Shown here one piece after another: positions 13,490-53,336 of a stretch of 64,000 nucleotides of DNA; positions within the stretch are counted from its first letter, which is position 1, and each line of letters opens with the position of its first letter. A program made the position numbers and the translations under genes. Where the stretch lies: assembly GCA_011947345.1 (NCBI GenBank), contig JAAVTG010000057.1, positions 186,001 through 250,000 on the forward strand, written 5' to 3'. The notes beneath the pieces are model-generated. The model made no database searches, was not told the DNA's origin, and saw only the letters and a list, made by a program, of their open reading frames with translations. The DNA comes from Phytophthora quininea. Its lineage: Eukaryota; Oomycota; Peronosporomycetes; Peronosporales; Peronosporaceae.

Positions 13490-14154
13490 TTATGGAAATA
13501 ACCCTAGAAGGGTTAAACGTGTCTGAGTTGTAGCATTCTCAAATTGTGTGTCCTCGAAAGCTTTTTCTTGCCTTCTCAGTCAATTGTTCCCACAAAGGCA
13601 AGTCTTGGAATTCATTGGTTCCGTCGCCAATCGATCCAAAATCTACGTTTAGCCGGGTCTCGCAGCATAATAGATGACTTTGGTGGAACTTCCATCTCGG
13701 TAATCCTCCAGTCTGGAATTATAAACTTCGTAAGCATTCACGTCTCGATTCAAGACGGAAATCGCCTTCATCGTGGCATTTGAATCTGAATTATCAATCC
13801 AAATAACAATGTGCTGCCAGTCGTGGCAGAAACCTTCGTGTTCTGTCGAGTCGTTCTTGGGGAAGTACCAGGCGTACATGATGGCCATAGACTCATTATG
13901 CTTGTCGATTCGTCCGTAAATTTGCGACCCCCAATTTTGACCCTTTGCAGTCCGTGGACCCAGACTTGGTTGACTCTAGTCCACTGTTCGTCTCTCCAGC
14001 AGCATTTACAGCAGGGTACGCGTGACAACCATCAGCTATTGATATTGGTGGTAGGTTTCGGCTGAGCAAACGGCTGGACTTGATCGGGGTTGACGGTAGC
14101 TGCTTCAACGGTGAAGGCGGAGAGAGCGAGGATGACAAGTGCAAGGAAATTCAT
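13490..14154 (-). pseudogene. Broken copy of an NLP (NPP1-type) secreted protein gene
   Basis: ATG at 14152-14154 gives an intact signal peptide and the start of an NLP, similar to the gene at 52608. The frame is lost near 14032-14045, and the stretch between the N-terminus and the first conserved Cys is much shorter than in the intact gene, so sequence is missing. It shifts again near the G run at 13927-13933 and in the last part near 13655. The CHAYPAVNAAGE, YAWYFPKN and C-terminal WEQL regions are present but in three frames. The histidine motif reads CHDWQ, also damaged. Most likely a decayed paralog, though some shifts may be assembly errors. No repaired reading is given. Confidence 0.75.
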
Positions 14155-14384: not shown

Positions 14385-14678
14385 TTAGTTGTTTTGCTTG
14401 TTCTCGTCCGCCGACACCATTTCCAACAAGGCTCGAATTTCTTCGTCCGTGAGGTCGAGATCGGTGTCGGGTTTCGCTTGTTGCGACTGGTTTGAACGTG
14501 CCAAATCCTGTTCCAATTGGTGTCTTTGATCCAGTCGACGCTGGCTGAAATTGGCCTTTTGACGGTGCATCTCGCAGAACTGATGCAGCTCTCCATTCCG
14601 CTTGACAGCGCGAGGATTGGAGCATTTCTTACTGGCGTAGAGACAAGTTGTGCCTTCGGACGCATTGCTAGTCGACAT
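14385..14678 (-). CDS. Cys/His-module basic protein 1 (tandem family)
   Basis: A 97-residue protein from the second ATG of its frame (MSTSNASEG; a longer start at 14714 adds 12 residues). The module is C-x6-C-x15-C-x2-H with CLYASKKC, then PRAVKRNGELHQFCEMHR and KANFSQRRLDQR. It is followed by a short linker and an acidic amphipathic end, DLDLTDEEIRALLEMVSADE. The Cys/His spacing resembles small zinc-binding DNA-interaction motifs such as the plant WRC. The basic block plus acidic tail looks like a minimal transcription factor. That role is inference. It is the first of four same-strand paralogs, at 14.4, 17.0, 17.6 and 18.4 kb. Confidence 0.8.
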   Translation of the reverse strand: MSTSNASEGTTCLYASKKCSNPRAVKRNGELHQFCEMHRQKANFSQRRLDQRHQLEQDLARSNQSQQAKPDTDLDLTDEEIRALLEMVSADENKQNN

Positions 14679-14784
14679 GATCGGAGCGTCACCAATTCGA
14701 AAGTGAAAGCGCACTGACTCAGCTGATCGTCACCATAGTCCTCAATGTTTCTTTGAGGACACACGGACACGCACTATCGTCAAT

Positions 14785-15310
14785 TTGGAGCAAAGGAAAG
14801 TATCATCGATGCTGAACCGTAGGCACTTGACGTTGAAGCTAAAGCTGAAGCGAATAAGCTCGCAGGACGAGCAGTTAGAGTACGATGGATTTCGTGAAAC
14901 TGCTCGACTCAATTGTTGTTCTTCCTTCCGAATCAACTGTCTCCTCGAAGCGACGAAATACATTTCGAGTGAGGGTCTCATCGTTACGGTCCACGCTGGG
15001 AAGTTCAGTTGTAGTATTGAACCATCACTACATTTCCGTCTTGTAACACGAACATCTCTGAGAGTGTAGCGTTGGAAGTATTGTCGTTTTTCTTTTGTAC
15101 CTGCTACTCGCACCAACGCTGGAAAAGATACTGCCGTCATTTCAGTTGTGTGATATCGAGATTCCGGACTCTCACGGAATATATAATGCACGTAGAAGCG
15201 AAATATGTAGTATGGTTATTGACCACTACTTGGCGAGAGGTAGCGTTGATACTGAAGCGGTACCCGTCGAGCTCTTTCAGTACAGATTTCAAACGGCTCC
15301 GTACCCTTCA
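14785..15310 (+). CDS. Possible small gene, frame-broken, unknown
   Basis: Two plus-strand frames look protein-like in sequence: 14809-15069 (RISSQDEQLEYDGFRETARL, SEGLIVTVHAGKFS) and about 15095-15300 (APTLEKILPSFQLCDIEIPD, ICSMVIDHYLARGSVDTEAV). They would join if bases are missing between 15060 and 15095. The 3' end abuts the convergent transporter gene. No domain is recognised, and a non-coding explanation remains possible. Confidence 0.3.
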
Positions 15311-16810
15311 GGCTTGGACAGATCGTTCACCAGTAACACCTCCGTCTCGTCCGCCGTACTGCTTGAAGCGTTCTCCACTTTTCGTCGTCGTCGATCTCCA
15401 GAGCCACTGCAATGGGTCATAAACATGACTGTACACAGCCCCACCAGCGCAGCGAGCGACGGCAAGATGCAGTACACTTGGCGTAGAAATTCGCCGTCTT
15501 GTTCCGGAAAGTCCTGCAGCTACTGACGCTCGTTCTGGATGAACAAAATGGCGATACCGTTGGAGATTTTATCCGTGAAACTCATGGCACCGTAGACAAA
15601 CGCCCCACTCTCGATATTGTTGCCGACCAGGTCGCCTTCAAGACACACTGAAGTCACCATGATGATGGAATTGCCCATACCGAGAATGATCGAGAACGGG
15701 TAGATCCAAATGGCCGTCTCTGGTGTCAGGAAGTATGACAACATGAGAGCTACCGCAATGAGACCAGCTCCAAGAGCGAACGTGCCCGTCCGACCCAAAG
15801 ACTCGTTCAAATACCGCAGGAAAAACGTCGCCAGGAAGCCTGACAGATACACCAGCAACGGCACGATCGCAATGGACGTGGCCGACATCTGCAGCGTCAC
15901 GATCAAGTAAAGGAAATGAACACTTGTGTGACGTTCACCACTAGCCGAGTGCACATGTAAACGAGTCCTACTTCGTAGAACATGCCGACTTTGAACCACG
16001 AACTCCAAGTCATGTGGTAGGAAGCGGTTGCTACAACAGGGTGCTCCACACTTCCTTCAAACGGCAGTGTCGACGGTCCTCGTTCTTGTAAATCCGCCAT
16101 CACGGGACTCTGCATTGCACTTCTTGGTTGGATTTCTTGCTTAGTCGTTGTCAATTTCTCCGGAGTTCCGACTACGAACACGACCGTGCAAAGTCCTCCA
16201 ACGAGTAGCGAAAAGTATGCCAACAGCGTGAATTTGTCTGCATCTGGAACTCCGAACGGTTCCACCACCCGTAAAAGCACTAAGAAGACGCAAAACACCA
16301 ACACATTCGACAGAATGGTGAAGGCATAGCGCGTGCTGTTGAGTACACAGCGGACGTTGTCATCTTCGGAAAGTTCCGGCACCATGGCCATGTGCGAGAC
16401 TTGCACTGTAGCCCACCCAATGTTGAAGATACTTGCGGCAGCACTGTAGTACACCAGTAGTACCATTCGACTTGGAGAGTCTGAAAACCATCGAGGAGCA
16501 CAAGCAGCAAACACGAAGAAGAAGCAGAGCACTACAAGAAGAGCTCCCATAGTCAACCAGAGTTTACGACGGCCTAGTTCGATAGCCGGTAGACCCGTCG
16601 ATCGGTCCGAGAAGACCCCCACCAGTGGGGTCGCGACCCCGTCGGCGATCTGACCGCAGAACATGACGACGGCGGAATCCACGGGGACATGTCCACTGCA
16701 TGACGCAGGAAGACGAGCAGGTAGGAGAACCACGTCGAAGCACACATGTCGTTCAGGACATGGCCTACCCCGTAGGCGAGGAAGCGGACGGGAGTCCACG
16801 TCGTGGACAT
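15289..16810 (-). CDS. MFS transporter (GPH/MFSD12-like), with an in-frame stop before the last helix
   Basis: ATG at 16808-16810 opens MSTTWTPVRFLAYGVGHVLN and a 12-helix transporter pattern: MFCGQIADGVATPLVGVFSD (the conserved loop after helix 2), ELGRRKLWLTMGALLVVLCF, FNIGWATVQVSHMAMVPELS and later SIILGMGNSIIMVTSVCLEG. The fit is with the glycoside-pentoside-hexuronide/MFSD12 branch; the substrate is unknown. The frame breaks at GGGG 16683-16686 and AAA 15914-15916. A TAG at 15520-15522 then interrupts an otherwise continuous frame that goes on to a final helix (LPSLAALVGLCTVMFMTH) and an acidic tail to 15289. That stop is a substitution, not a run error, so it may be a true nonsense change. 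Confidence 0.8.
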
Positions 16811-16957
16811 GGCGACGATTGTAAAGTGCGTGGCGGTTGTGCCGGTGGTGGAGGGGCGGTTATAGACGGAGGATTCTGGAACTGGATGGTGACGATGAGT
16901 CGAGGTGAAGCGGCATCCCATCAAGGTCGGTTCATCGGATACCACAAGAGAATTCTT

Positions 16958-17290
16958 TTAGTTAACCGGCGAGAGTTCAATGTCGGTAAGGAACTCGTCT
17001 AGTACTTGCAGTTCGGTTTGATCCAAGTCTGAGTCTGTGGGGTCTTGTTGATTGGAATTGGATTGACGACGATTTTGTTTCCGACGACGTTCGTCGAGTC
17101 TGCGTTGGTTCACGTTGGCTTTGGCGCGATGGTATTCGCAGAGTCGATGGAGCTCTCCATTGCGCTTCCGGACGCGTACGTTCTGACAGGGTTTGCTTGG
17201 ATATCCGCACCGTTGAAGATCGTCGACGGGTTTCTTCTCATCGACATTGTTGAGTTGGTGGTGGGTGGTTGACGGAGTGTCGGAACTCAT
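16958..17290 (-). CDS. Cys/His-module basic protein 2 (tandem family)
   Basis: A 110-residue protein from the internal ATG (MSSDTPSTTHHQ); an upstream ATG at 17395 would add 35 residues of unlikely composition. The module C-x6-C-x15-C-x2-H is CGYPSKPC, VRKRNGELHRLCEYHRAKAN, NQRRLDERRRKQNRR. The acidic end DSDLDQTELQVLDEFLTDIE matches the tail of the other three copies. It is intact in one exon and sits 148 bp upstream of the MFS gene on the same strand. The role is unknown; nucleic-acid binding is inferred from the zinc-like Cys/His set and the basic helix. Confidence 0.8.
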   Translation of the reverse strand: MSSDTPSTTHHQLNNVDEKKPVDDLQRCGYPSKPCQNVRVRKRNGELHRLCEYHRAKANVNQRRLDERRRKQNRRQSNSNQQDPTDSDLDQTELQVLDEFLTDIELSPVN

Positions 17291-17605
17291 GGACTTGGAA
17301 CTGCTGAGGACGAGGCAGATTTTACAATGGCAAGGCGTTAAAAGCACCCGCTCGCCCGTGCGTAAGGAGTTGCTGGACTTTGCGGCACGAATCACCCACG
17401 ACCCCGATCCAAACAGCCTTTTGCAGATTTTTCATGGTCGATCGGATCGAAAGCCGACAGACAGGTGACCCCTTGGTATAACACTTGGGCCTGTCCTGCT
17501 GAAGATCCCCAGGAAAGTCATTGCTGGTCGGCATTTACTGTCTGCAAGGCAAGAACAACATACCAGAAATGGTCAGACGATCGTTTATATTCTCTCATTC
17601 TTCGT
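17291..17605. other. Spacer between tandem copies 2 and 3
   Basis: About 315 bp without a credible gene. It holds the 5' flank of copy 2 and the 3' flank of copy 3. I see no repeat. Confidence 0.4.
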
Positions 17606-18034
17606 TCAAGGACGGCTGTCGCTTACGTCGTCTTCAAATTCAATGTCTTCCAAGCTGTTTTGCGACAGCAGTTGGCTTAAGAAGTTGAGTTCGTCCTGCT
17701 TCAAGACGGTGTGAAGTGGTTCTGGAGGCTCGCTTGATTCTGGCCAAGTTGGATGCGGCTCGATCTTGGGGTCTTGACTCTCTGGGATTGGTGTGCGCTT
17801 TGGAGCTGACGCCACTCGAGCTTTCTCTTCGAGTTTCCGTCTGGCTTCGAGTCGCCGTTGGTTGTGGTTGGCTTTAGCTCTGTGGGCATTGCAGAAGCGA
17901 TGCAGTTGGCCGTTCCGTTTGACCGCGCGAGGTTCTTCACAGCGTTTACTAGGGTATCTGCATCGCCAATCTTCATTGAAATGGTAGTAGCAGACGAAGG
18001 CTTGGGTATGGTTGGTGGAGACTGACGGATCCAT
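17606..18034 (-). CDS. Cys/His-module basic protein 3 (tandem family)
   Basis: A 142-residue protein from MDPSVSTNHTQ; a further ATG at 18103 would add 23 residues. The module is CRYPSKRC, PRAVKRNGQLHRFCNAHR, KANHNQRRLEARRKLEEKAR with identical Cys/His spacing. The linker is longer and proline-rich (PKRTPIPESQDPKIEPHPTW), and the end has the amphipathic helix VLKQDELNFLSQLLSQNS plus an acidic patch EDIEFEDD. Single exon, no break. Same strand and spacing as its neighbours, consistent with tandem duplication. Confidence 0.8.
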   Translation of the reverse strand: MDPSVSTNHTQAFVCYYHFNEDWRCRYPSKRCEEPRAVKRNGQLHRFCNAHRAKANHNQRRLEARRKLEEKARVASAPKRTPIPESQDPKIEPHPTWPESSEPPEPLHTVLKQDELNFLSQLLSQNSLEDIEFEDDVSDSRP

Positions 18035-18420
18035 AGCGGAATTGGACAGTGATGTTGGGAAGGAGTCGAATTGGCTTGTGAGACCGAACCAAAGCTTGAT
18101 CACGCTGAGGCTTATCGATTGTCTATCATTGCTTACGGATTCAAGTCATAATGAGCCGTGTCGATAGGTACTAGCATTTGTGGCCCGCCTTGAGCCTTAC
18201 CACGAGAATCCGGGGAGAAGTAATGATCTTGACTTGGGTTCTTCTGGATACTGATTTCGATGGGCGGACTACAATCTTTCGGTGCGTTTTAGCGGAGACC
18301 AAGCAAGGTGATGGAGGGCTAGCCTATTGCTGATATCTTACGAGCAGTGCACTTGACTGAAGCGAGTGTTAAACCGCTCACAATATACTTTTTTTATTGA
18401 TGAACAGTAGTTCAACGCCA
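18035..18420. other. Spacer between tandem copies 3 and 4
   Basis: About 385 bp with only short, unsupported ORFs. Nothing recognisable was seen. Confidence 0.4.
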
Positions 18421-18809
18421 TTACGGATGGTGTACGGACGACAAGTAGTGCATCATCTGCTCCGAGTTCTCGTCGCTGTCACCGTCCAAGATCTTGTCGG
18501 CTTCTCCCGACGAGAGCAAGTTGTCGAGGTATTCCAAGTCCTTCGCAGTCAGATCTTCGTACCACGGCGAATCGCCATCCAACGGAGATGTGGGGCTGCT
18601 TAGATTGGCCTTTTCCTCTTCAGCTTTGAGTTTACGTCGACGGTCGACTCGGCGTTGGTTGAGGTTCGCCTTCATTCGATGGTAGTCGCAGAAGCGATGC
18701 AGATCGCCGTTCCGCTTGACGGACCGAGGGAACTCGCATCGTTTGCTTCGGTACTTGCACCGCGTCTCCTCCGTCACTCACGCAACACAGCGTCGTAGGT
18801 TGTCGACAT
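18421..18809 (-). CDS. Cys/His-module basic protein 4 (tandem family), start uncertain
   Basis: The frame 18777-18421 encodes CKYRSKRC, PRSVKRNGDLHRFCDYHR, KANLNQRRVDRRRKLKAEEE and the tail WYEDLTAKDLEYLDNLLSSG, then a Ser/Met/His-rich end. The frame has no ATG (GTG at 18775-18777, preceded by TGA). An ATG at 18807-18809 opens MSTTYDAVLR, which resembles the MST/MSS starts of the other copies but is one base out of frame. I take 18809 as the likely start with a missing base. The module itself is intact and identical in spacing to the other three. Confidence 0.72.
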
Positions 18810-19093
18810 GCTTTCAACGGTTCTGAAGTTGGTAGTCGTGTCAAACGTAGCGTGAATTCAGGAATGCTATCGACCATCGACTAGGTGTCGGACCTTCGTT
18901 GCAGAACTTCATTCGTGTCGAATTTCCGCGCGAATATTGACGAAGCCACCTCGTGCTCTATCAATGACCGGATTACGACGGATATTATCTTCGTTCTTGG
19001 CATGAAAGTCCTGGATATCAACCCTGGGTACATCTCCATAAAGTCCTTCGTAGTCTCACCATGACTCCAAACTATTGTTAGAGAGCACGCAGG

Positions 19094-20380
19094 ATGTTTC
19101 ATGTCCGTCGTCAGTCAGTGGGAGTGTCCTCGGGATTAAAAAAACTCCAAGTAGTAATGCAGTCTCCGAAAGCGCTTCACCATCAAACTCGACGAGCCAA
19201 TGGGCCCATTTCCATCCCGCTAGAGAGCTTTCGAAAGGGATCAGATAGTGTGACCATGCGCGATGCCCTTGCGGAATTGGCTCTGAGACTGATCGACCAG
19301 GAAGATCGAGAGGAGTTTCGCAAGATGGACGGCGTCACAACTCTCGGTAGGTCGGACAGTACTTGTGGAAAGGAAAAAAATCAAAACTCTTTGACGCTCT
19401 CTTGCAACTACGACATGTAGTCGATCATTTGGCACGAATCATGGAGGAGCAAGCTTCTCATAATAATTCCTGGACCTCGTCCCAAGTGTTTGGCACCAAG
19501 TAAGTTCCATCCGTAGGTATCAAAGAAGACCACTAACTTGTTAAACGTTGCAGATGGGACGAGTTTGAAGTCCACGACTCGCTCCAGTTCTCACGTACGG
19601 AAATCACCGATAGAAACTTTGAAAACATCCATGCTTACGATCATCTCTTTGTTCTAGTGATAGCAATTTGTCACGCCAGTATCGATTCGGATATCGCACT
19701 GGAGATGTTTGAGCTTGGTGCTCTGGAGTCTATTTCCCAAGTGATATATGTGTTGCCGAAAAACGCCACGATTTCGTTCCGCTCGCGCTCGAATGCTTGA
19801 GGAATTTGTGCTGCTCCGACTGCATTCACAATGGGCTTCCCAATGACTTCGCCGACAAGATGTGGGAGAACCTTCTTGACCAAAATGAGGTGCGATACTC
19901 TCACCGACTATTCCGTGATCTTAAAGCTAAGAATTTATGCCTCAGACCTCATCGTATTGGCAAGAATTGGCGGCTGAAGTTCTCGGTAACGTGGCTGCCA
20001 TATCGCCGTCAAGTGCGTCCGCAGCTCCAGAGAAACTAGCAGTCATATTGACGTCGTTCCTGGCTGCAGTTGCTGACGTCGACTGCCACAACTTCGCAAT
20101 CGCTTTGGCCGATCTACTCTGCAATCTCTGCGTGGATCCAGATCTGTGTCTTTTGCTGATCTGTGAGCTTGACAATCATCGTCCTCGGAGGCGAACAAGA
20201 CACAGCGGCGTCGTATACCTCGCAGAGCTGACCGACAAAATCGACAATGAAGCTCTTAAGCACAGTATGGAGTCGCTCGTCCACAACCTCTCCTGGAGCG
20301 ATCCAGCAGGCAAACGTAGTGTCCAGAAGCTCGCTTTATCCAGTTTCATGCATCGATTTGCAGTAGAACCAGCGCTTTGA
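19094..20380 (+). CDS. Armadillo-like helical repeat protein
   Basis: Four exons with introns 19347-19420, 19500-19553 and 19890-19945. The product is helical and ARM-like: MRDALAELALRLIDQEDREE, then SIDSDIALEMFELGALESIS, ALECLRNLCCSDC, WQELAAEVLGNVAAISP and FAIALADLLCNLCVDPDLCL. ARM repeats bind partner proteins; the partner is unknown. The break at the A run 19759-19763 separates YVLPKN from LALECLRNL; one more A joins them. About 370 residues. I do not recognise a specific subfamily. Confidence 0.7.
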
Positions 20381-52607: not shown

Positions 52608-53336
52608 ATGAACCTGCGAAACTTCCTCGTCGCTGCCGTTGTGGGGCTCTTTACTGCCGAAGTCTCCGCTATCGGCCATGACCAAGTCCAGCCGTTCCCT
52701 CAACCAGTTCCTGTCACTGCGGCCGAGAAGGCTGCGATTCAATTCAAGCCTTCGCTGTGGATCTACAGCGGATGCCACTCATACCCGGCTGTGAACGCCG
52801 CCGGTGAAATTAGCGGCGGTTTGAAGGCATCCGGCGATCCCGACGGACAATGCAAGGGCTCCGGTTACGGCTCGCAGGTCTATGGTCGAGCTTCGCTCTA
52901 CAACAACATGTGGGGCATCATGTACGCTTGGTACTTCCCCAAGAACCAGGCCATGTACCAAGACGGCCACCGTCACGACTGGCAGCACATTGTGGTGTGG
53001 CTTAACAACGTGGACGCCACCCCACCGATGATGACCGGCATTTCGGTCTGGCAGCGCGACCATTACAAAATCGTCACGACCGAGCTCGATAAGTGGAAGA
53101 CTGGCGACTCGCCCAATGTGTACTACTGGACCGACTCGTCGTTCAAGACGCAAACGCTCGAGTTGAGCTCCACTTCCAAAGACGGTCAATTCCAGGACCT
53201 CATCATGTGGGAGCAAATGACCGATGCCGCGCGAATGAGTCTCGAGGACGCTGACTTTGGTGATGACGCTACGGTGCCGTTCAAGGACTCCACTTTCCAG
53301 GAGAACCTGGTCAAGGCATGGCCAGTAGGCAAGTAG
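52608..53336 (+). CDS. NLP (necrosis- and ethylene-inducing peptide 1-like protein, NPP1 family), Glu-to-Gln in the core motif
   Basis: A 242-residue secreted protein; the start gives a signal peptide (MNLRNFLVAAVVGLFTAEVS). Two conserved cysteines (SGCHSYPAV and GQCKGS) mark a type 1 NLP. The central strand contains YAWYFPKN and the heptapeptide region GHRHDWQ. In cytotoxic members the last residue is Glu and helps hold the metal ion needed for membrane damage; here it is Gln. This suggests a non-cytotoxic NLP, as many Phytophthora members are. The frame is intact. A broken relative at 13.5-14.2 kb has the same Gln. The nlp-type pattern recognised by plants lies in the same region. Acts in the plant apoplast. 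Confidence 0.9.
   Translation: MNLRNFLVAAVVGLFTAEVSAIGHDQVQPFPQPVPVTAAEKAAIQFKPSLWIYSGCHSYPAVNAAGEISGGLKASGDPDGQCKGSGYGSQVYGRASLYNNMWGIMYAWYFPKNQAMYQDGHRHDWQHIVVWLNNVDATPPMMTGISVWQRDHYKIVTTELDKWKTGDSPNVYYWTDSSFKTQTLELSSTSKDGQFQDLIMWEQMTDAARMSLEDADFGDDATVPFKDSTFQENLVKAWPVGK

What the first reader, a model, noticed from the sequence alone, without database searches (positions are those of the whole stretch)
14385..18809. Four tandem genes share an invariant C-x6-C-x15-C-x2-H basic module and an acidic amphipathic tail
Seen: all four proteins (97-142 aa) keep exactly C-x6-C-x15-C-x2-H-R-x-K-A-N-x2-Q-R-R-[LV]-[DE]-x-R, with KRNGxLH in the loop. Each ends with a helix of pattern L-x3-[ED]-[LI]-x2-L-x2-[LFM]-[LV] in an acidic setting, while linkers diverge freely. 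Known: the spacing is near that of small zinc DNA-binding motifs such as plant WRC, but not identical. Inference: a compact oomycete transcription-factor-like family with a zinc-stabilised basic DNA-binding part and an acidic activation tail, expanded by tandem duplication. I recall similar unnamed oomycete proteins but cannot confirm a description.
Basis: partly seen in the sequence, partly recalled or inferred. Interest (0 to 1): 0.78.

Follow-up and report, generated by a model that had tools for sequence, protein, structure and literature searches.

The report
Oomycete zinc-finger-like regulator gene family
Four neighbouring genes in a water-mould genome belong to a large, unnamed family of small proteins that probably control other genes: each has a strictly conserved, probably zinc-holding DNA-binding piece, often with an acidic tail that may switch genes on.

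Summary
Four minus-strand genes (14385-18809) keep C-x6-C-x15-C-x2-H, KRNGxLH and HRxKANxxQRR. Corrections: an MFS transporter ORF lies between genes 1 and 2, and gene 4's frame is broken near its start, though a 98% identical copy on another contig is open. The module recurs at 68 places in the genome. Every listed database hit with an organism name is an oomycete. 222 of 223 collected proteins keep the exact spacing; eleven positions never vary in 36 module types. AlphaFold2 models a confident module with a long basic helix and a separate tail helix. Profiles for WRC, SBP, SCA7, zf-C3Hc3H, EsV-1-7 and WRKY19-type repeats fail. Best reading: an oomycete family of small zinc-type DNA-binding regulators, many with an activation tail. 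Zinc, DNA binding and activation are inferred. Members exist publicly as 'hypothetical proteins'; nine paper searches showed no description of the family.

The parts
14385..14678 (-). gene 1, 97 aa, complete single ORF
14565..14645 (-). gene 1 module C-x6-C-x15-C-x2-H (residues 12-38)
14415..14441 (-). gene 1 tail motif EIRALLEMV (residues 80-88)
16958..17290 (-). gene 2, 110 aa, complete single ORF; its best matches are beside gene-3 orthologues in four Phytophthora species
17129..17209 (-). gene 2 module (residues 28-54)
16988..17014 (-). gene 2 tail motif ELQVLDEFL (residues 93-101)
17606..18034 (-). gene 3, 142 aa, complete single ORF; 12 hits in the first search, 48-63% identical, 11 of them named, all Phytophthora
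17882..17962 (-). gene 3 module (residues 25-51); modelled with pLDDT 91-97 (means of 10 residues), followed by helix 49-76
17666..17692 (-). gene 3 tail motif ELNFLSQLL (residues 115-123) inside modelled helix 113-125
18421..18809 (-). gene 4, frame broken between its ATG and the module in this window; an intact copy exists on contig C256
18679..18759 (-). gene 4 module
18514..18540 (-). gene 4 tail motif DLEYLDNLL

Best explanation
The four genes are members of a large oomycete family of small nuclear transcription regulators. Each carries one compact module in which three Cys and one His (C1, C8, C24, H27; an invariant fifth candidate is H21) most likely hold one zinc ion and brace the start of a long basic helix (HR-x-[KR]-A-N-x2-Q-R-R). 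That helix and the invariant K15/G18 loop most likely contact DNA. A variable linker leads, in many members, to a short acidic, amphipathic helix ([ED][LIV]xx[LF]xx[LFM][LFV]) that most likely recruits the transcription machinery, as acidic activation domains do. Shown: conservation, spacing, purifying selection on the module, recurrence of the tail, predicted helices. Inferred: zinc, DNA binding, nuclear location, activation.
For: 222 of 223 collected proteins have the exact spacing; 11 positions are invariant in 36 module-cluster representatives, and the 25 residues after the module carry net charge +3 to +11, mean +7. Module pN/pS 0.05 against 0.65 for the rest, pooled over 10 sequence pairs. 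AlphaFold2: module pLDDT 91-97, helix 49-76, separate helix 113-125 (88 over residues 111-120, 73 over 121-130); module alone pLDDT 88, pTM 0.62. Genes are clustered and the gene-2/gene-3 pair is old: adjacent locus tags in P. pseudosyringae, P. megakarya, P. boehmeriae and P. cinnamomi.
Confidence: 0.62

Rival explanations
1. The module is a chromatin or protein docking zinc finger (as the SCA7 domain of ataxin-7 is reported to bind nucleosomes; recalled) and the proteins are co-regulators that do not read DNA sequence themselves.
For: A small CCCH layout with a basic helix fits nucleosome contact as well as sequence-specific DNA contact; public names call some members 'SCA7 domain-containing' (P0027, P0039, P0063).
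Against: The SCA7 profile has one genome match, below its cut-off and not at a family locus; P0027 has no SCA7 match in Pfam. The many divergent paralogues fit a sequence-reading family better than a co-regulator (inference).
Confidence: 0.2
2. The module binds RNA (basic helix plus zinc site) and the proteins act after transcription.
For: Basic, Arg/Gln-rich stretch after the module; nothing in the sequence distinguishes DNA from RNA.
Against: The acidic amphipathic tail is typical of activators (general knowledge) and recurs across divergent members.
Confidence: 0.1
3. A secreted or host-directed effector family expanding in clusters.
For: Clustered, multi-copy genes in an oomycete; one hit is named 'Secreted protein F2' (P0126); a necrosis-inducing-protein gene lies in the same window.
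Against: By eye no hydrophobic N-terminal signal in genes 1-3; no signal-peptide program was run. The module is under strong purifying selection, unlike the host-contact part of most effectors (general knowledge).
Confidence: 0.05
4. The four loci are decaying duplicates without function.
For: Gene 4 is frame-broken here; some copies elsewhere are truncated or have lost a ligand.
Against: Genes 1-3 are complete; genes 2 and 3 have orthologues in other species; gene 4 against its C256 copy shows 2 synonymous and 0 non-synonymous changes in the module (small numbers).
Confidence: 0.05

Closest known systems
WRC domain of plant GRF transcription factors (PF08879)
   Same: Small Cys3His layout with C-x2-H at the end, described as DNA-binding (PMC7380329, passages); two members carry the public name 'WRC domain-containing' (P0160, P0199).
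   Different: Spacing CX9CX10CX2H against C-x6-C-x15-C-x2-H here; no Pfam WRC match in 14 proteins scanned singly nor listed for 24 members; no WRC match over cut-off in the genome.
EsV-1-7 repeat (Ectocarpus IMMEDIATE UPRIGHT family, PF19114)
   Same: A stramenopile-expanded Cys-rich module (passages); spacing recalled as C-x4-C-x16-C-x2-H, the nearest to this one and nearer still to the C-x5-C branch (recalled; one search found no paper that prints it).
   Different: A repeated motif in IMM against one module in most proteins here; 7 matches in this genome, all below cut-off (best 18.2 bits against 25), none at a family locus; not listed for 24 members.
WRKY19-type zinc repeat (PF24906)
   Same: Cys-Cys-Cys-x2-His layout; very abundant in the same genome (184 matches, only 150 of 933 candidates scored).
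   Different: Shorter spacing and an HGG signature; profile-profile comparison with 26 repeats from 8 loci finds only the shared C-x2-H locally (hhalign probability 1.7%; 0.1% in global mode).
SBP, SCA7 (ataxin-7), KANSL2-type zf-C3Hc3H
   Same: Small zinc modules of nuclear proteins (general knowledge); SBP and SCA7 appear in public names of some members.
   Different: One genome match each, all below cut-off and away from the family loci; no match in 14 proteins scanned singly.

Membership tests
WRC domain (PF08879) | spacing CX9CX10CX2H | tested here: not met
   C-x6-C-x15-C-x2-H in 222 of 223 proteins; WRC spacing from passages of PMC7380329
WRC domain (PF08879) | match to the curated profile | tested here: not met
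   0 of 14 proteins scanned singly, P0160 and P0199 among them; not among the 25 families listed for 24 members, a list that ends at E 7.8; 5 genome matches, all below cut-off. HMMER's filters drop most matches above about 0.1.
EsV-1-7 repeat (PF19114) | match to the curated profile | tested here: not met
   0 of 14; not listed for 24 members; 7 genome matches, all below cut-off, none at a family locus
EsV-1-7 repeat (PF19114) | remote homology by profile-profile comparison | not tested
WRKY19-type zinc repeat (PF24906) | profile similarity and HGG signature | tested here: not met
   0 of 14; not listed for 24 members; hhalign probability below 2%; C-x2-H is followed by R in 36 of 36 representatives
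SBP (PF03110) | match to the curated profile | tested here: not met
   0 of 14, P0107, P0111 and P0119 among them; 1 genome match below cut-off
SCA7 (PF08313) | match to the curated profile | tested here: not met
   0 of 14, P0027 among them; 1 genome match below cut-off
zf-C3Hc3H (PF13891) | match to the curated profile | tested here: not met
   0 of 14; 1 genome match below cut-off
any solved zinc fold | structural similarity of the module model | tested here: inconclusive
zinc-type DNA-binding activator (functional class) | conserved Cys/His ligand set | tested here: met
   63 of 82 own-genome domains by a strict count
zinc-type DNA-binding activator (functional class) | binds zinc | not testable with these tools
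   needs purified protein
zinc-type DNA-binding activator (functional class) | sequence-specific DNA binding | not testable with these tools
   needs HT-SELEX or microarray
zinc-type DNA-binding activator (functional class) | acidic amphipathic tail activates transcription | tested here: inconclusive
   tail motif recurrent and modelled as a helix in gene 3; activity not tested

The most novel reading that the evidence does not exclude
This is an uncatalogued, oomycete-wide class of DNA-binding transcription factors with its own zinc module and a modular acidic activation tail. With at least 28 module clusters (78% identity) in this genome alone it could be among the larger oomycete TF families, missed because catalogues are built from known domains. 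One branch of it has been picked up and spread by a Helitron-like element.
Probability: 0.5. Interest if true: 0.75.

Novelty: new variant of a known kind. Interest (0 to 1): 0.56.

Why it matters
The P. infestans TF catalogue with measured binding sites found its factors by Pfam and InterPro domains (PMC11267843, named sections). A family with no such domain would probably be left out of it and of the regulatory maps built on it; its supplementary tables were not seen. If the family binds DNA, oomycete gene control has a large missing layer that can be tested at once with existing binding-array methods. Public names for members now conflict (SBP-type, WRC, SCA7, bZIP, Hsp70-like, secreted protein), so a defined family would also clean up annotation.

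Tried and rejected
Pfam gave only matches below its cut-offs (the strongest were E 0.0011 to 0.0027, HrpB7, UPF0240 and PEHE, one member each, taken as noise from basic or low-complexity stretches). NCBIfam on 8 proteins gave two noise matches. PDB sequence searches gave noise. Foldseek and VIA-align on the full gene-3 model and on the module alone gave nothing useful; absence of WRC, SBP or other zinc folds from those lists is no evidence against them. A pattern-based scan of viral contigs confirmed no relative. One of prokaryote genome contigs gave one locus (L088), which on reading has no module and overlaps an aminotransferase-like ORF on the other strand, so I take it as chance. The species was not identified. 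Paper searches for locus tags of members (0 papers), for the spacing written out and for oomycete factors of these kinds showed no description of the family in their listings; only open-licence PMC papers are held. Searches were searches for the comparison families. A first translation of gene 2 was in the wrong frame and was redone. A bacterial promoter scan does not apply to this genome and is not used.

Rows dropped and limits of counts: clusters 274 sequences, namely 222 of 223 proteins then held (P0103 has no full module), gene 2 and 51 own-genome ORFs; those ORFs come from 48 of the 57 fetched loci, the ones that fit the regex. The wider tail motif was fixed after I had seen non-window tails, so only the strict one is an independent test. 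The P0007 cluster is a split of the gene-3 orthologue group: without it the counts are 15 and 6 of 35. Only 120 of the 174 hits were listed, and one search scored only the 7,992 candidates sharing most words. 'Two modules' is mostly an artefact of CC starts. In one search, whose profile was built partly from these same loci, 19 of 82 domains do not show all four ligands: in most the profile alignment begins after the first Cys, some are truncated, and copies in L058, L060, L061 and L065 have lost a ligand. In one search the 'rest' ratio is apparently inflated by pairs with frame changes outside the module (L034/L037, L036/L040), and L012 is used twice.

Full report
Observation. The four minus-strand genes were read from the window. 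Pairwise BLAST between the four gives E 7e-20 to 5e-26. Two points need correcting. Gene 4 cannot be read from its ATG into the module in this window; a 97.9% identical copy on contig C256 (probably the other haplotype) is open. Between genes 1 and 2 lies an MFS_2 transporter ORF on the same strand.

Extent. The window lies in an 87-Mb assembly of 993 contigs. Gene 3 finds 68 places in it at E up to 1e-3, on 44 contigs, nine of which hold 2 to 6 places. The 64 places outside the four window genes were fetched as 57 loci; all 57 carry at least one domain by a profile built here, partly from the same loci, and 63 of 82 domains show all four ligands by a strict count. Many places are near-identical copies or haplotype pairs, so the number of distinct genes is lower: 28 of the 40 module clusters are represented by a sequence of this genome (24 other loci plus the four window genes).

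Distribution. Three protein searches returned 12, 88 and 174 hits, 120 of the last listed. Every listed hit with an organism name is an oomycete: Phytophthora, Nothophytophthora, Peronospora, Hyaloperonospora, Bremia, Plasmopara, Peronosclerospora, Globisporangium, Pythium, Lagenidium, Albugo and Thraustotheca. A scan of viral contigs confirmed no relative, and one of prokaryote contigs gave one chance match. The searches need shared short words, so remote relatives elsewhere are not excluded.

Conservation. 222 of 223 collected proteins have C-x6-C-x15-C-x2-H exactly; the exception, P0103, lacks the front half of the module. In 36 module-cluster representatives with this spacing, C1 Y3 C8 K15 G18 H21 C24 H27 R28 N32 Q35 never vary, and the 25 residues after the module carry mean net charge +7; four further clusters have C-x5-C. 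H21 is a fifth possible ligand. Over 10 sequence pairs the module has pN/pS 0.05 (27 synonymous, 5 non-synonymous differences) against 0.65 for the remainder, the latter apparently inflated by frame changes in two pairs.

Tail. A wider form, which I set after seeing non-window tails, occurs in 16 against 0.70. One cluster is a split of the gene-3 group, so 6 and 15 of 35 are the fair figures. The wider motif ends within 40 residues of the C-terminus in 14 of the 16. It is kept in 11 of 11 sequences of the gene-3 group, 33 of 33 of the CSYPSKLC group, 21 of 23 of the CSYRTGKC group and 14 of 15 of the CRYPNKRC group, but in only 6 of 11 of the gene-2 group and 9 of 14 of the CRYPSKHC group. Twenty clusters lack it. 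The tail is a real, recurrent but not universal part.

Age of the tandem. Gene-2 and gene-3 orthologues have consecutive locus tags in P. pseudosyringae (007107/007108), P. megakarya (00016151/00016152), P. boehmeriae (008030/008031) and P. cinnamomi (g475/g474), on contigs of the same length (best hits). The pair is therefore old within Phytophthora. Genes 1 and 4 have no clear orthologue among the hits: their best matches lie in other clusters at 38-59% identity.

Structure. With a 56-sequence alignment AlphaFold2 models gene 3 with a compact module (pLDDT 91-97), two short strands, a helix 49-76, a poorly defined linker and a helix 113-125 over the tail (block means 88 and 73). The module alone gives pLDDT 88 and pTM 0.62; there the helix stays but the strands shrink to bridges. 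No solved structure is similar enough to name.

Known families. Pfam and NCBIfam have nothing over a cut-off for the members tested. Public name fields call members SBP-type, WRC, SCA7, bZIP, C3H1-type, Hsp70-like or secreted protein. The Pfam models for SBP, WRC and SCA7 do not match members so named, and these, zf-C3Hc3H and EsV-1-7 have no match over cut-off in the genome. WRKY19-type repeats are very common in this genome but share only C-x2-H with this module. WRC has spacing CX9CX10CX2H (PMC7380329, passages). EsV-1-7 is the nearest in spacing, from recall.

Literature. The P. infestans TF catalogue (PMC11267843: abstract, sections 5, 13, 22, 26 and passages) used domain models and lists 22 families; its main text does not hold SBP, WRC or SCA7 as words. 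The stramenopile TF survey (PMC4222949: abstract and results) is also built on domain rules. EsV-1-7 was read about in passages only (PMC7457493, PMC12993054). Nine paper searches, seen as listings, showed no description of this family; five of them were aimed at it. The nuclear-localisation paper PMC5288373 was seen as abstract and outline only; it reports that P. sojae nuclear signals often need additional basic residues, which would suit the basic helix (inference).

Mechanism. The most economical reading is a one-zinc module that braces a basic helix for DNA contact, plus, in a large part of the subfamilies, an acidic helix that recruits the transcription machinery. What is shown is anatomy, constraint and recurrence. 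Zinc, DNA, nucleus and activation remain to be tested, and a chromatin- or RNA-binding role is the main rival.

Noticed in passing
L049-L052, L054, L055, L060 (and C16): A two-module C-x5-C relative occurs in 8 dispersed copies, 97-100% identical. Seven compared copies share one sharp edge, close to CTAG on the opposite strand, and the two copies read further carry PIF1-like helicase ORFs on that strand inside the shared unit: a Helitron-like element carrying a member of the family.
   Followed up: partly
L012-L020, L023, L025, L029, L030 (contigs C704, C705, C706, C292): Thirteen near-identical modules of one member, with variable Ser/Thr repeats in the proteins, in both orientations several kb apart: a recent amplification or an assembly duplication.
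   Followed up: partly
whole genome G000: 184 matches to the WRKY19-type zinc repeat with only 150 of 933 candidates scored, many in arrays.
   Followed up: no
window 52608-53336 and 13649-13963: A complete NPP1 (necrosis-inducing protein) ORF at 52608-53336. At 13649-13963, minus strand, a short ORF resembles it by eye and looks like a remnant; the gene-1 locus L004 matches window 52913-52993 at 79% over 81 bases.
   Followed up: partly
window 15520-16921: The MFS_2 transporter between genes 1 and 2 appears spread over several frames (introns or decay not resolved; only 15903-16664 was tested).
   Followed up: no
window 18401-20284 and L003/L009 (C256): C256 ends in a 97.7-97.9% identical copy of this region, probably the other haplotype.
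   Followed up: yes
P0020, P0025, P0043, P0067, P0101, P0126: Members of the family bear unrelated public names (Hsp70-like, RAN GTPase-activating protein 1, 12-oxophytodienoate reductase, Secreted protein F2), probably carried-over misannotation.
   Followed up: no
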